A model generated the notes under the pieces. It was not told the DNA's origin. It ran no database searches and saw only the letters and a list, made by a program, of their open reading frames with translations. From Halicephalobus mephisto (lineage: Eukaryota > Nematoda > Chromadorea > Rhabditida > Panagrolaimidae): a DNA stretch of 64,000 nt. The stretch covers positions 1 to 64,000 of the forward strand of contig SWDT01000074.1 of NCBI GenBank assembly GCA_009193035.1, given 5' to 3'. Below, one piece after another: positions 45,643 to 53,376 of this stretch. The translations under genes were made by a program, and so were the position numbers. Positions within the stretch are counted from its first letter, which is position 1. The number at the start of each line of letters is the position of its first letter.

Positions 45643-47109
45643 TCAATTTTCTTTCGATTTTTGTCCTGTTCTCTTCCTCGGGACCGTTTTAGCATCGGTA
45701 TTTTTGTACTTTTTCACATCATTTCTGCTCATCGTTCTTCGATCTCTGCAACCTTTCCCGCCTTCCCAGAACACAGTTGTAGTTTTGGTTACTGTACCTT
45801 TACAAAAATTACAGTTTTCCTTCGAAAACGGCTGTTCCGTCGAGCAAAATCCACATATCATCCTGTTTGCAAATTTCATCTCATGGTCTTTTTCAACTTC
45901 ATCATGACAGACATCACAAGGATAAAGTTTTCCACAACATGGAAATCTGAAAAATTAACTTTCAAAAAAGTATTAATAAAAGTTGTAATTTTTCATTTTA
46001 TGAACTTTCGTGAAAATTTCGACCTCGAAAAACAACTATATCCCCTGTAACCCTGATCCAGAAGTTTCCAAATCTATGGAAATAAAATATGTATTTCAAA
46101 AAATCACTACAATGCAGTTTCTTTTCGATTTCGTAATTTTCAATTTTTTAGGATCAATTTTTCGAAAACTGAAGTAACCCAAAATATCAATCAAGTGACC
46201 AAAAAGGTCAATTTAAAAAAAATCCAAAACCAAGACGAATTTTAAATGAACAACAACCGTAGTTTAAAAAACACCAATTACGAAATCGTCACGCAAGTTA
46301 CTTTAGTTTCTAAAAACTTCTAAAATTCAGTCTAAACGTTACATCAGTTTATATAAACAAGTCTCATATTGAGATTATAGGAGATTTTTATAATATACTT
46401 AACACTTAGTGCAACGTTTTAATATAAAAAAAAGTCATACCACAAAATCCAGATAAAAAAATTTGGATCGATACAAAACATAGGCTAAATATATCTTTAA
46501 AAACTTTCTTTCGAGAAAAACCTCAATGAGTCTTTATCTTGTGCAAATTAATGTTATCCTATACCTAGATTTATTTCGAGTACTTTTATAGATGGTGAGA
46601 GTATTTGAGAGAGTATCTGTAGTAAAAAGTTTAATACGAAAATTAAAAGTTTTCTAAATGATTTAGTTCTCGAAAATAGTCCAATATATATACCATTACA
46701 GTTGACTCTAAAAATATGGTTGACACAAAAATATTTGCTTGATAAATTATTTAATAACTTTTAAAAATTTCTACAATGAATTCCAAAAAACTAATTTATC
46801 TAAAATCAAAAATTTTTTAAATTTCCAAAATTTGAAAAAAATTAGTTTTACAATAATTAATATCACACTCACCACTGAACATCTGAAACTTTTACCGTAA
46901 TGCTTGCAAGTACCGTTTTAGGAAAGGCTGACCTTGGATGGATGATCGAATTCATTTGAGGTTTCTTCTTCGGACCCCTGGCCCCTTTCACGTGTTCTCT
47001 TGAGGAATCGCCGAAGTCAGTCCTCTGAAGGCAAATGAATGAATAACGAATCTGAATTCCGTGTTACATTGTCGACACCAGCGATATTAGGGGCTCCATA
47101 AGGAAGACT
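45643..47109 (-). CDS. CHY-type zinc-finger protein, reading frame uncertain
   Basis: Exon 45643-45946 encodes FPCCGKLYPCDVCHDE, then MICGFCSTEQPFS, CNFCKG and FWEGGKGCRDRRTMSRND, and ends in a basic tail. These are the zinc ligands and the conserved end of a CHY zinc-finger subfamily found in fungi and invertebrates. Upstream exons look like 46873-47024 (or to 46876) and 47068-47109, with good splice sites. The expected CKHY start of the finger is present (CKHYGKSFRCS, 46908-46876), but in a frame different from the open upstream text (RTDFGDSSREHVKG...) and with a stop just upstream. Using the alternative donor GTGGTG at 46875 gives an unbroken product that skips CKHY. Either a base is missing here or the gene is damaged. 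The N-terminal start was not found. CHY proteins act in redox or ubiquitin-linked roles; the function of this one is unknown. Confidence 0.6.
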
Positions 47110-47113
47110 CTGA

Positions 47114-47759
47114 AATCATCATTGTAATAAGTAATATTTTATGCTAAGGAAGAGTAATTGATTGCAGAAAGAGCAACTTTGCGAGGAAGATTTATAATTA
47201 TTAAGAACCTTATTTTAAAATTGCACTCCTAATTATATTATATGAGAGTTAAATATATCTACGCTGTGTGGTGTATGTCCGTAATTCAATTAATAATTGT
47301 CAAAAGATAACTCATTTAATGATGAGAAATGGATGCTTATTGATAACTGATATCAGAGTGCATATTTATTTTCAATAATATTTTTAATGAGATACTAAAT
47401 AATAGTAGGGCTTCATAAGATTAATTCCTAGAGATATATTTTTCAACCGAAAGATAGGTTTAAATTCGTAATTTCTATTTTATATATCATTATAAATCAA
47501 ACATGTGATTATGAAGCATTTTATATTTTTTAAGAATTTTACAAAATCCAAACGAGTTAATTCAAGTTTTAGTTGTTAATACAAACAAAGTTTCATATAT
47601 AACAAGAAATGGTCTAGGGAAATTCAACTTCACTTAATCCTCAAATACTAATGATCTATGTAATTGTTCATAGCATATCAGATTCTTTTCGAACAAAGAT
47701 ATAGATGCGTTTGATGCACTTTATACAGAATTGTTGAGTCTATTATTTGTTCCATCAGA
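47114..47759. other. AT-rich spacer between CHY gene and CAD region
   Basis: No exon of either neighbour is visible here. It should hold the 5' end of the CHY gene and, if CAD were whole, much of its N-terminal coding sequence, which is absent. Confidence 0.5.
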
Positions 47760-48990
47760 GGTATTTCTCGGGAGGGGGGTCGGCCATTTCTGGCTGGTTT
47801 TTTCACCTCATCATCGAGTCTTATTGCTGCTAGAGAGGATCATGCACTTTATAGGCGGATTCGTGGATATGTGCATTTTGGGGCCCCGGGCGCCTGTGCC
47901 CGCCCGTGCTTGTCCTGCTGGCGGGCTTCCGTCAGTCCACGTCCCGTTAATTTTTGGGTCTCCTCTTTGCCTCACCCTCCTACACTTCTCAACTCGCTGT
48001 GATAAATAGTACGAACCGAACGAATTAATTGTTGGCGGGCGCGTCTTGAAGAACACGGCGGGTACAGCAAGTATAATCGCCCGGATCTACTACTTGCCTG
48101 GTGACACCCCATACCTGCACTCTTCCGTAGGTATCGGCGCGCTCGTTTTCGGTCTACGTCCGCAGCCGATTTGCCCTCTGGGTCGAGGATCTGGCGAGTA
48201 CGCTCAAATTCGCTTCGACGTAATACGGTCACTTAGAAGCGCCTTATAGCAATATCGATCACGCTTTGCTCTCCACCCCGGGACTCCTTGTGCCCGTCTA
48301 CGTTGGCGTACAGGCAGTTGATAACGTAGAGTATAGTCCGCGCGCTTGACACTTGTCTCTGCCTGCACCGGCCTGCCGTCGTTCCCACGGGAGCGGGATG
48401 TCGTCGTCCCCAGTCGACCTTGACCGAATTTGGAGTACAAGCTCTGAGAGACTGCTTATCATTAGTCATTCGCTCCACTTCGGCTGTTGGAGAGTGCAAT
48501 ATCCAGTATGCTTTGCCCCAAAGAACTTGAAGTGGGTTTAATTGTTTGTCAGTGAATTTTGCATTTATGGTTAGTACTATATCATTGAAGTCAATGCCCG
48601 TCTTCCATTCGGGCTCTTGCTGTAAGGCCACTGGTTACCCTTGGCCTATGTCGCGCCTCAACTTGCCTCTTGGGGAAAGACTCCTGATTTGAGGAACTGG
48701 TACCTCAGAAGACACGGCTTGCTTCGAACCTGCTCTGATTATTGTGTTTTAAGATTCCTAGATGGGATTTAAACTAATTTGCCAAAGTTTCAACCAGAAT
48801 ATGGTTCCTCTATGAAGTCCTGGAGAAGTCATGGAATCGGAAGAAGCTTCGAAGAAGCGTTCCAAAAGGCCTCAGAAGGTCAGTGATCACTACGAGGTTT
48901 CACGCCTTTCATGCGGCGGGATTCGGACTGACCGGAAATGTTCACGGAACTCTACGGATAAGAGAATTCTCTCGATTGCTAAGCCTCTTA
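47760..48990 (+). pseudogene. pyr-1: Eroded first-half CPSase region of CAD, broken by stops and frame changes
   Basis: In CAD order, but in changing frames, are LTEFGVQALRD running into VGECNIQYAL (48420-48515), YYIIEVNARL (48575-48604), KIPRWDLN (48751-48774, followed at once by TAA), GSSMKS (48803-48820) and GIGRSFEEAFQKA (48833-48871). They match the conserved carbamoyl-phosphate synthetase stretch up to the allosteric and oligomerisation region. Weaker traces, such as an SIIA phrase near 48070 and a GRGSGE phrase near 48185, reach back to about 48050. About 60 bp separate VGECNIQYAL from YYIIEVNARL, more than twice the usual spacing. 47760-48050 is GC-rich, but I cannot match it securely. 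No glutaminase domain is seen upstream. This may be genuine decay or a poorly assembled stretch of a working gene. The open minus-strand frames here are read as shadows. Confidence 0.75.
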
Positions 48991-49000
48991 GTAACACATA

Positions 49001-52000
49001 GACACATATTCCAAGCCGCTGAGCAACATTTCCTCTTTCATGAGTGGACGGAAATCGATAAGTTCTTCTTGTATCGCATGCAGAATATCATCGATATCTA
49101 CAAGAGGATCCAGCAATTTACTGGGAAATCCTTACCGAGGAAGTTACTGCTAGAAGCGAAACAAGCTGGATTCAGTGACGCCCAAATTGGTAAAACAATG
49201 AAGGCTGCGGAAGGACTGATCAGACAGCTGAGGAAGGAGTACGGAATTAAGCCGATGATAAAGCAGATTGACACTCTTGCTGCCGAATGGCCTGCAACAA
49301 CGAATTATTTGTACTTGACCTATAATGGAGTGGAGAACGATGTTGAACCTGACATGGTGAGTTAGCAAGTAGATGATAGTAGTTATTGATTAATTTCCAG
49401 AAGAATTCCGTTGTCGTCCTTGGAAGTGGTGTCTACCGTATTGGTTCTTCTGTCGAGTTCGATTCCTGCTGTGTCGGTTGTGTCAGAGAACTCAAAAAGC
49501 TCGATTACAAGACGATCATGATCAACTGCAATCCGGAAACTGTCTCCACTGATTACGACATTTGTGATCGTCTTTACTTTGAGGAAATCTCCCTAGAAAC
49601 TGTCGGATGCATCTATGAATTTGAAGAACCGAAAGGATTGATTCTCGCCTTTGGAGGGCAAGCCCCGAATAACATCGCTATGTCCCTCGCGCGAGCCAAA
49701 TTCGATATTCCGATCCAAATCTTCGGGACGACTCCGGAGAACGTCGACAATGCTGAAGACAGATACAAGTTCAGTAGACTCTTGGACAACCTGAAAATCA
49801 GTCAACCAAGATGGAAGCGTGCTAATAATGTCCTCGAAGTGGAAGAGTTCTGTGAAGAAGTCGGATACCCTTGTCTCGTTCGACCTAGCTATGTCCTTTC
49901 TGGAGCTGCTATGAATGTTGCTCATAACAGAGAAGACATGGTGAGTTTCCTCGACCAAGCCGTGGTTGTTGCTAAGGAACATCCAGTTGTCGTCTCCAAA
50001 TTCATCGGTGGAGCGAAGGAAATTGATGTTGATGCTGTAGCTAGATACGGTCAAGTCATTGCAATGGCTATTTGCGAACATATTGAAAACGCGGGAATTC
50101 ACTCTGGTGACGCTACTCTCGTTTGTCCTCCCTTCGATTTGACCGAGAAGACAATCAGAGAAATCAAGTCTATTACGACGAAAATTGCTGGGGGATTAAA
50201 AGTCAATGGACCTTTCAACATGCAGTTGATTGCCAAGGATGATGAGTTGTTCGTGATTGAATGTAACCTCCGAGCCTCTAGATCCTTCCCCTTTGTCTCT
50301 AAGACTTTGGATTTCGATTTCATTGGAGCTGCTACTTGTGTTATGATGGACAAGCCGGTCAAGGTTCCAGAAGAAGTCATGTGGGGGAAGAAGTTGGGTG
50401 ATCAGAAGAAATTTGGAGTTAAGGTTCCTCAGTTCAGTTTCCCCAGACTTGCTGGAGCTGATGTCATTCAAGGAGTCGAAATGGTCAGTACTGGAGAAGT
50501 CGCTTGTTACGGCAAGAACCATCTGGAAGCGTACTTGAAGGGATTGATCGCTACTGGATTCGAGATCCCGCGGAAGAACGTCTTCCTTTCTTTCGGGGGA
50601 GTTCCTTCCAAGACGGAGATGCTCGAAAGCGTTGAGACTTTGTCCAGACTTGGATTCAACCTATTTGCCAGCAAGGGAACTGCTGATTTCTATAATTCTG
50701 AAGGGATCCATGTCAAGACTGTAGAATGGCCATTTGAGGAAGGTGGAGCTGCAAACTCTGGGTTCAGCTCGAGTGCCAAAACTGCTGCTCAAGCTAAAAC
50801 CGTTGCTGATTATTTGGAAAACAAGGACTTTGATCTTGTCATTAACTTGCCTATCAGAGGAAGTGGAGCTTACAGAGTTTCTGCGTACTGCACTCCTGGT
50901 TACAAAACTCGAAGAATGGCTGTGGACAATGGAATATCCCTGATTACTGACATCAAGTGCGCAAAGATGTTGATTAAGGCTTTGGAACAGATGAAGAGCA
51001 AAGGAGAGAGCTATCCTGCTTTCAACTCCATGTTTGACTCCATCTCTTCCAAGCAATTGAAGCGATTGCCTGGTTTGATTGATGTTCATGTTCATATGAG
51101 AGAACCGGGAGGAGAACACAAGGAAACTTGGCTCACTGGATCTAGAGCTGCAATTGCTGGAGGTGTCACAATGATTCTTGCTATGCCGAACACGAATCCG
51201 CCTTTGGTTGATGAAGAAAGTTTTAACGTCGTCGAAAGCAAGGCTTCTGTGACTTCTATTGCTGATTATGCTCTTTATATTGGAGCTACTCCAAATAACG
51301 TCCCTGTAAACCCAAAATTAGCAAAGAAAGTGGCTGGAATGAAGATGTACTTGAATGAGACTTTTGCTGCTCTCCAAATGCCAAACATTGCTGATTGGCA
51401 GAGACATTTTGAATCTTTCCCGAAATCTAGACCAATCGTCTGCCATGCTGAGAAACAGACTTTGGCTGCAGTTTTGACAGTTGCGAGATTGACTGATCGG
51501 CATGTCCACATTTGTCATCTTTCTACAGCTGAGGAGATTCAACTTATTAAGAAAGCCAAACTAGATGGGTGGAAAGTGACCTGTGAAGTTTGTCCTCATC
51601 ATCTTCTTCTCACTCAAGAGGATTTGGATAAGGGATGGCAAGAAGTTAGACCAAGACTAGCCACTCAATCTGATGTTGATGCTCTTTGGGAGAACCTTGA
51701 ATTCATTGACTGCTTTGCTACTGACCATGCTCCTCATACGGAAGCTGAGAAACTCAATGGAACTCCTGGTTTTCCTGGAATTGAGTACATGCTTCCATTG
51801 TTGTTGACAAAGGTCAAGGAGAAGAAGTTGACAATGAAGCAACTAGTTGATCGCCTTTACTACAACCCTAAGGCTATCTTCAACCTACCGGAACAAAAAG
51901 ATACGTACATTGAAGTTGCTCTTAATGAGGAATGGACCATTCCGGAAAGTGGAGGCGAAAGTAAAGCCAGTTGGACTCCATTTGCTGGAAGACAAGTTGT

Positions 52001-53275
52001 CGGGAAAGTTCGCAATGTCGTCATTCGGGGGGAGGAAGTCTACGTTGATGGACACTTCGTGGCTGAACCTGGATTTGGAAGAAATGTGAGACTCTTTGAG
52101 GAGAAACAAGAAAAGAGAGTTCTTGAACCGGAGGATTCCTTTGAGAGTGATAAGGACAGGAGAGTTTCTGGTGACAGCAATGGACGAAGTGTGCAAGAAT
52201 TGTCTCCAGTGAGATATCCTTTGAGATCTCTTTCTCCAGAGAAGAACTTGATCTACAGAAAAAACATTTTGAACGTTGAAATGTTCACCAAGGACATTAT
52301 TCATCAGATTTTGGAGGAAGCTGATCGATGCAGAGTTGCTGTAGAGACGAATCAAAGAATCTGCGACACTTTGGCTGTGAGTTTCATATATGGATTTTAT
52401 ATGATCCGTTGATGACGAATTTTTAGGGTAAAGCAATGGCTTCTATGTTCTATGAAGTTTCCACAAGAACTAAATGCTCTTTTGGATTCGCGATGAAGAG
52501 ACTCGGTGGAGCTGTTGAAGACATGGATGCGACTTCATCTTCGGTAAAGAAGGGAGAATCTCTGGAAGATTCTATTGCGATGATGGATGCTTATTCTGAC
52601 ATTATTGTTCTTCGTCATCCGGAAGTTGGGGCGGCAGAAAAGGCTGCAGCTGTCGCTAGAAAGCCAGTCATTAACGCTGGAGATGGAACAGGTCAACATC
52701 CCACACAAGCTTTGCTTGACCTCTATACTCTTCGTTCTGAACTTTCAACTATCAACAACTTGACTATTGCCCTTGTTGGAGACTTGAAGAATGGAAGAAC
52801 TGTCCATTCTTTGGCCAAGATTCTCTGCTGCTACAAAGACATTACTTTCCACTATGTCAGCCCGACGAAGGAGCTTGGAATGCCTCAGGAAGTCATTGAC
52901 TATGTTCAGGAGCATTCTCCTAACTTTGTCCAGCACCAATTCACAGATCTAGCTGAGGGAATAAGAAATGTGGATGTTATTTACATGACCCGGATTCAGA
53001 AGGAACGATTCTCGAATCCAGCGGACTACGAGAAAGTCAAAGGAAAGTTCATCTTAACTTCGCAGGTCCTCGATGAGGCTAGGGAAGAGTCTACTGACGA
53101 CTACAATGTCCTCCGTCCTCAGAAGAAGCTCCCGATCGTTATGCATCCCCTTCCTCGTGTGGACGAGATCAGCACTGAAGTAGATGCCGATGAGAGGGCT
53201 GCTTACTTCAGACAAGCCCAAAATGGAATGTACGTCAGAATGGCCTTGTTGAAGCTGATCCTTGGTGTTCAGTAA
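49001..53275 (+). CDS. pyr-1: CAD multienzyme: C-terminal CPSase half, dihydroorotase and aspartate transcarbamoylase
   Basis: Exons are about 49001-49356, 49401-52376 and 52427-53275, with introns of 44 and 50 bp. The first part ([34 protein letters not shown]) leads into the second ATP-grasp half ([50 protein letters not shown]) and an MGS-like regulatory domain ([13 protein letters not shown]). The dihydroorotase has its metal ligands: [11 protein letters not shown], the carboxylated lysine in KMYLNET, CHAE, HICHLS and DHAPHT. A linker with RRVSGDS near 52157 precedes the transcarbamoylase ([31 protein letters not shown]). Together these give the first three steps of de novo pyrimidine synthesis in the cytosol. 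Every catalytic motif in this part is intact. The 5' half is damaged (separate entry), so the frame entering 49001 is uncertain. The gene converges on dyf-5, 155 bp away. Confidence 0.96.
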
Positions 53276-53376
53276 TTCTTATTTTTCGTTGAGTTTTTAT
53301 TGTGAAATTTTCTTGTTGGTAATCTTTGGATGTTTCCTATGAAGTGTACTTGGAAAAGTTGGGACTTGATAACTCG

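What the first reader, a model, noticed from the sequence alone, without database searches (positions are those of the whole stretch)
47760..49000. 5' half of CAD/pyr-1 is shattered while the 3' half is perfect
Conserved CPSase peptides occur in the right order (VGECNIQYAL, YYIIEVNARL, KIPRWDLN, GSSMKS, GIGRSFEEAFQKA) but in all three plus frames, with an in-frame TAA straight after KIPRWDLN and about 35 extra bases between two motifs. From about 49000 on, over 1,400 codons are free of damage. Normal decay would hit both halves. Options are a bad assembly patch, a recent rearrangement that joined an old CAD copy to a living one, or an organism keeping only a truncated CPSase-DHOase-ATCase.
Basis: partly seen in the sequence, partly recalled or inferred. 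Interest (0 to 1): 0.8.

Follow-up and report, generated by a model that had tools for sequence, protein, structure and literature searches.

The report
Misjoined contig splits a normal gene
The gene is not broken: the assembly pasted two separate stretches of a roundworm genome together through error-ridden sequence, and the missing front half of this pyrimidine-making gene sits intact at the end of another contig.

Summary
The window is the start of contig C322 (98,230 bases) of a 59.9-Mb nematode-like assembly. The CAD/pyr-1 3' half is clean from 49,027 (1,384 codons). The 5' half is intact on contig C216 and runs off that contig's end at base 1, in frame with window 49,027. Window 47,805-49,026 is an error-ridden copy of C216:1186-1 (score 576; 20 shuffles reach at most 130). 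Window 46,782-47,147 is a 93% copy of the start of a third contig, C53:147-516, with a weaker continuation to C53:939. A CHY zinc-finger gene is split the same way between C53 and this contig. So C322 is a false join of (left + C53) with (C216 + right), most likely through one poorly corrected chimeric read (inferred). Genome searches found no second copy of either half of CAD. It is an ordinary full-length CAD, not a pseudogene, a recombinant or a truncated enzyme. The 'extra bases' are mostly a noisy copy of a 46-base intron.

The parts
45643..45954 (-). Last exon (zf-CHY domain) of a zinc-finger gene whose earlier exons are on contig C53:3152-238(-); marks the true right-hand neighbour of the left part of the contig
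   Evidence: Pfam PF05495; follows the C53 exon directly in 5 of 5 homologues P0241-P0245; all 7 genome matches of P0241 are on C53 or C322
46782..47147 (+). Error-ridden copy of C53:147-516 (93% identical), with a frameshifted copy of the CHY gene exon
   Evidence: 93%; 25 edits over 366 bases, z 48; frameshifted exon copy
47148..47755 (+). Probable, very noisy copy of C53:517-939 (moderate support)
   Evidence: Segment test 131 against at most 60 in shuffles and 57 in 70 decoys, with bounds taken from the alignment itself; fairer local test 105.2 against at most 103.8 in 300 shuffles and 86.6 in 50 decoys
47756..47804 (.). Inferred chimeric junction between the C53-side and the C216-side copies
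   Evidence: ends of the two local alignments; the interval matches neither contig significantly
47805..48397 (+). Very noisy copy of C216:1186-654 (CAD CPSase-A coding sequence)
   Evidence: local score 78.4 against at most 39.0 in 300 shuffles and 30.6 in 48 decoys, query 47,756-48,397;
48398..49026 (+). Error-ridden copy of C216:653-1: about 83-94% identical per 100-base block up to 49,000, 63% in the last 27 bases; frameshifts and a noisy copy of a 46-base intron
49027..53275 (+). Intact 3' half of CAD/pyr-1: CPSase-B, MGS, DHOase, ATCase; exons 49,027-49,356, 49,401-52,376, 52,427-53,275
   Evidence: Pfam; 1,384 codons, one stop at the end, GT..AG introns

Best explanation
Contig C322 is a misassembly. 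Its left part (1 to about 46.78 kb) truly continues into contig C53. Its right part (49,027 onward) is truly preceded by contig C216 read on its minus strand. The stretch 46.78-49.03 kb is poorly corrected long-read sequence that runs from the left locus into C53, jumps at about 47.76-47.80 kb to a point 1.2 kb inside C216, and runs on into the right locus. It is most simply one chimeric read used as a bridge. Shown here: the overlaps with two contig ends, the split of two genes, single copies of both CAD halves, indel-dominated errors. Inferred: the nature of the sequencing, that one read was the bridge, and why it was not polished. In the animal, CAD is an ordinary full-length pyrimidine-synthesis gene. 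The confidence given is for the misassembly as such; for a single chimeric read as the cause I put about 0.75.
For: All 8 genome matches of the reference P0058 (a CAD that lacks the ATCase end) lie on C216 or C322, the N-terminal part clean only on C216 and the CPSase-B/DHOase part only on C322. The window's CPSase-B/DHOase frame and the C216 frame each find, besides themselves, only each other at 29% as paralogous halves; the ATCase exon finds only itself. C216 ends at base 1 where the window becomes clean, in frame. Window 47,805-49,026 aligns with C216:1186-1 at 576, against a mean of 107 and a maximum of 130 in 20 shuffles. Window 46,782-47,147 matches C53:147-516 at 93%. The matches lie at the ends of contigs of 831,604 and 79,751 bases. 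The CHY zinc-finger gene is split between C53 and C322. Over 48,398-49,026 against C216: 12 substitutions, 35 deletion events (27 of one base; one 10-base end gap is due to where I cut), 20 insertion events (14 of one base). Cross-checks, each core against the other contig, are negative.
Against: The middle is very noisy. Single 200-base blocks match weakly: z 4.8, 1.1 and 2.5 against C53 and 3.0, 0.0 and 4.8 against C216. In the reverse direction, C53:517-650, 651-800 and 801-940 fit the window no better than shuffles (z 0.0, 0.4, 0.7), and C216:1200-1001, 1000-801 and 800-651 give z 2.8, 0.8 and 7.3. The bounds in the segment test came from the alignment itself; in the fairer local test the C53 core only just exceeds the best of 300 shuffles (105.2 against 103.8), while the C216 core clearly does (78.4 against 39.0). 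Edit distances of about 38-47% exceed what I would expect of ordinary raw reads (recalled). Deleted bases are not enriched in homopolymers on the C216 side (21 of 52 against a background of 0.48; on the C53 side 9 of 11 against 0.58). The first 146 bases of C53 do not clearly match the window (score 37, shuffles up to 43), so the left edge is unresolved. No raw reads were available, and genome-search counts are lower bounds.
Confidence: 0.97

Rival explanations
1. Same false join, but not one chimeric read: two low-quality overhangs, one at the end of the left contig and one at the start of the right contig, were glued by a scaffolder or gap filler. (A variant within the misassembly reading, so its odds are part of the 0.97.)
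For: The noise is worst in the middle, and a short interval at 47,756-47,804 matches neither contig. Scaffolding a nematode draft with PBJelly has been done (Halicephalobus mephisto, PMC6872716, passages seen), but that is a different assembly.
Against: A single chimeric molecule needs fewer steps; the window holds no N to mark a scaffold join.
Confidence: 0.22
2. A real genomic rearrangement: an old, decaying duplicate of CAD exons was fused to a living CAD 3' half.
For: Frameshifts and stops in recognisable CAD sequence.
Against: No second 3' half was found for the clean 5' half on C216, and no second clean 5' half for the 3' half here. Errors are indel-dominated, 55 indel events to 12 substitutions. 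Clean C216 ends exactly where the clean window begins. A second, unrelated gene is split at the other edge in the same way.
Confidence: 0.01
3. The organism keeps only a truncated CPSase(B)-DHOase-ATCase.
For: None beyond the window itself.
Against: Intact small-chain, GATase and CPSase-A domains are on C216 (Pfam PF00988, PF00117, PF25596, PF02786), in frame with the window's 3' half.
Confidence: 0.005

Closest known systems
CAD / C. elegans PYR-1 (GLN, CPS-A, CPS-B, DHO, ATC on one chain)
   Same: All five domains are in the genome in the usual order, split over C216 (GLN, CPS-A) and this window (CPS-B, DHO, ATC). PYR-1 domain list from PMC12811246, passages seen.
   Different: Nothing biological that I found; only the assembly splits the gene.
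Misassembly of a contig through a chimeric or low-quality long read
   Same: Two loci joined mid-contig, true neighbours left as contig ends, bridging sequence full of uncorrected indels.
   Different: Sequencing method and assembler are unknown. The general phenomenon is recalled. Of PMC6719893, on scaffolding and misassembly detection with Hi-C, only passages were seen; its one mention of chimeric reads concerns Hi-C reads.

Membership tests
CAD multifunctional protein | Small-chain/GATase, CPSase-A, CPSase-B, DHOase and ATCase encoded in one reading frame | tested here: met
   Pfam domains on C216 and window; C216's last codon continues in frame at window 49,027. Met only across two contigs.
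CAD multifunctional protein | Single transcript across the two halves | not testable with these tools
   No RNA-seq available
Pseudogene | Disabled copy besides, or instead of, a functional gene | tested here: not met
   The clean halves are complementary, and no further copy of either was found
Chimeric-read misassembly | Junction sequence duplicates two other contig ends, with uncorrected errors | tested here: met
   C216:1186-1 and C53:147-516; continuation to C53:939 moderate
Chimeric-read misassembly | Raw reads support the alternative joins and not the written one | not testable with these tools
   No raw reads held

The most novel reading that the evidence does not exclude
The sequenced stock carries, at low frequency, a real rearrangement joining these two loci, and the assembler happened to capture it from a single noisy read.
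Probability: 0.01. Interest if true: 0.15.

Novelty: not a real feature. Interest (0 to 1): 0.05.

Why it matters
It matters only for the quality of this assembly: contig C322 should be broken near 47.78 kb. Left uncorrected, annotation would report a truncated CAD and a truncated CHY zinc-finger protein, and comparative work could infer a false gene loss or a false synteny breakpoint.

Tried and rejected
Looked for inverted repeats that would indicate a hairpin (missed-adapter) read in 46,500-53,300: 14 pairs, the longest 28 bases at 71%, none spanning the stretch. Searched Pfam with three of the open frames of the noisy stretch (47,674-48,006 +, 47,811-48,086 -, 48,233-48,634 -): no family. 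The first block control charged gaps at the ends of the target and gave meaningless scores; it was discarded and redone, and a fairer local control was added. Tried to name the species: the assembly size and contig number (59.9 Mb, 331) do not match Halicephalobus mephisto (61.4 Mb, 880 scaffolds; PMC6872716, passages seen). The CAD hit of highest identity in the list is Panagrolaimus superbus (76% over 73% of the query; the hit of best score is Caenorhabditis auriculariae, 62%), and the best named CHY hits are Panagrolaimus. In one search I set one exon end a base off; corrected. One search for papers on chimeric reads and contig misassembly listed 3 papers; passages of one were seen.

Full report
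What is there. From 49,027 to 53,275 the gene is clean: three exons with GT..AG introns, 1,384 codons and one stop at the end, holding the CPSase-B, MGS, DHOase and ATCase domains.

Where the rest of the gene is. The window is bases 1-64,000 of contig C322 (98,230 bases) in an assembly of 59,891,389 bases in 331 contigs. Searching that assembly with a nematode CAD protein (P0058, Toxocara canis, which lacks the ATCase end) gives 8 matches, all on C322 or C216. The ATCase exon finds only itself. The CPSase-B/DHOase frame and the C216 frame find, besides themselves, only each other at 29%. Contig C216 (831,604 bases) carries, on its minus strand from about 2,620 down to base 1, the small-chain domain, the GATase and CPSase-A. 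Its open frame runs off the end of the contig: the last exon, 456-1, has exactly 152 codons, and the next codon is window 49,027. The two clean parts together make one CAD.

What the shattered stretch is. Window 47,805-49,026 aligns end to end with C216:1186-1, score 576 against a mean of 107 and a maximum of 130 in 20 shuffles. Over 48,398-49,026 the differences are 12 substitutions, 35 deletion events and 20 insertion events; 41 of the 55 indel events are of one base, and one is a 10-base end gap due to where I cut. The intron carries indels too (2 deletion events in 46 bases, read from the alignment). This looks like uncorrected long-read sequence, not like an ageing pseudogene, in which substitutions outnumber indels (both recalled). 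The 'extra bases' between VGECNIQYAL and YYIIEVNARL are mostly the noisy copy of a normal 46-base intron, C216:502-457. The stop after KIPRWDLN arises from an indel relative to C216.

The other side. The disturbance does not stop at 47,760. Window 46,782-47,147 is a 93% copy of C53:147-516, at the very start of a third contig of 79,751 bases. A local alignment carries on to C53:939 at window 47,755 (score 452 for C53:10-939, 20 shuffles at most 178), but most of that score comes from the 366-base copy. For the rest alone, 47,148-47,755 scores 131 against C53:517-939, with shuffles at most 60 and 70 decoy segments at most 57. Those bounds were taken from the alignment itself; a fairer local test gives 105.2 against at most 103.8 in 300 shuffles and 86.6 in 50 decoys, which is moderate support. 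The same fairer test for the C216 side, 47,756-48,397, is clear: 78.4 against at most 39.0 in 300 shuffles and 30.6 in 48 decoys; testing each core against the other contig gives nothing. Block by block, several pieces of the core are no better than shuffles.

A second gene confirms the link to C53. The minus-strand exon at window 45,954-45,643 is the zf-CHY end of a zinc-finger protein, and its preceding exons lie on C53:3152-238. In 5 of 5 homologues these follow one another, for example residues 465-540 on C53 and 542-635 in the window for P0241. The homologues were found with a query in which I had joined the exons, but they are natural proteins from other sources. The window also holds a frameshifted noisy copy of that C53 exon at 47,122-46,882. 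All 7 genome matches to P0241 are on C53 or C322.

How it arose. The left part of C322 belongs with C53, and the right part belongs with C216. The written contig follows neither. It goes into C53, jumps near 47.76-47.80 kb to 1.2 kb inside C216, and comes out in the right part. One chimeric read used as a bridge explains this in a single step. Identity is highest at 46,800-47,100 and 48,400-49,000 and lowest between them, but the outermost pieces, 46,632-46,781 and 49,000-49,026, are weak again, so the idea that reads anchored in the clean flanks polished only part of the bridge is an inference that fits only in part. Gluing of two noisy overhangs is the main rival and makes no difference to the biology.

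What is left open. The first 146 bases of C53 do not clearly match the window, so the exact left edge is uncertain. The middle is noisier than I would expect of raw reads. No reads were available, the genome searches give lower bounds on counts, and the species could not be named. None of this affects the conclusion that the shattered half is an assembly artefact.

Noticed in passing
window 45,643-45,954 and C53:238-3152: A second gene, a CHY zinc-finger protein, is split by the same misjoin; an annotation of it from this assembly will be truncated.
   Followed up: yes
L014 (C53) 969-1,294 and 1,486-1,657: An intron of the zinc-finger gene holds inverted repeats (71-base arms at 85%; 29-base arms at 100%, 114 bases apart), which look like short inverted-repeat elements.
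   Followed up: partly
window 1,969 onward: The left part of the contig is crowded with AT-rich tandem repeats (189 rows from Tandem Repeats Finder over the window, 150 of them shown), with 1-kb blocks as low as 12% G+C.
   Followed up: no
L014 (C53) 1-146: The first 146 bases of contig C53 do not align clearly with the window although the bases after them do; either that contig end or the window is wrong there.
   Followed up: partly
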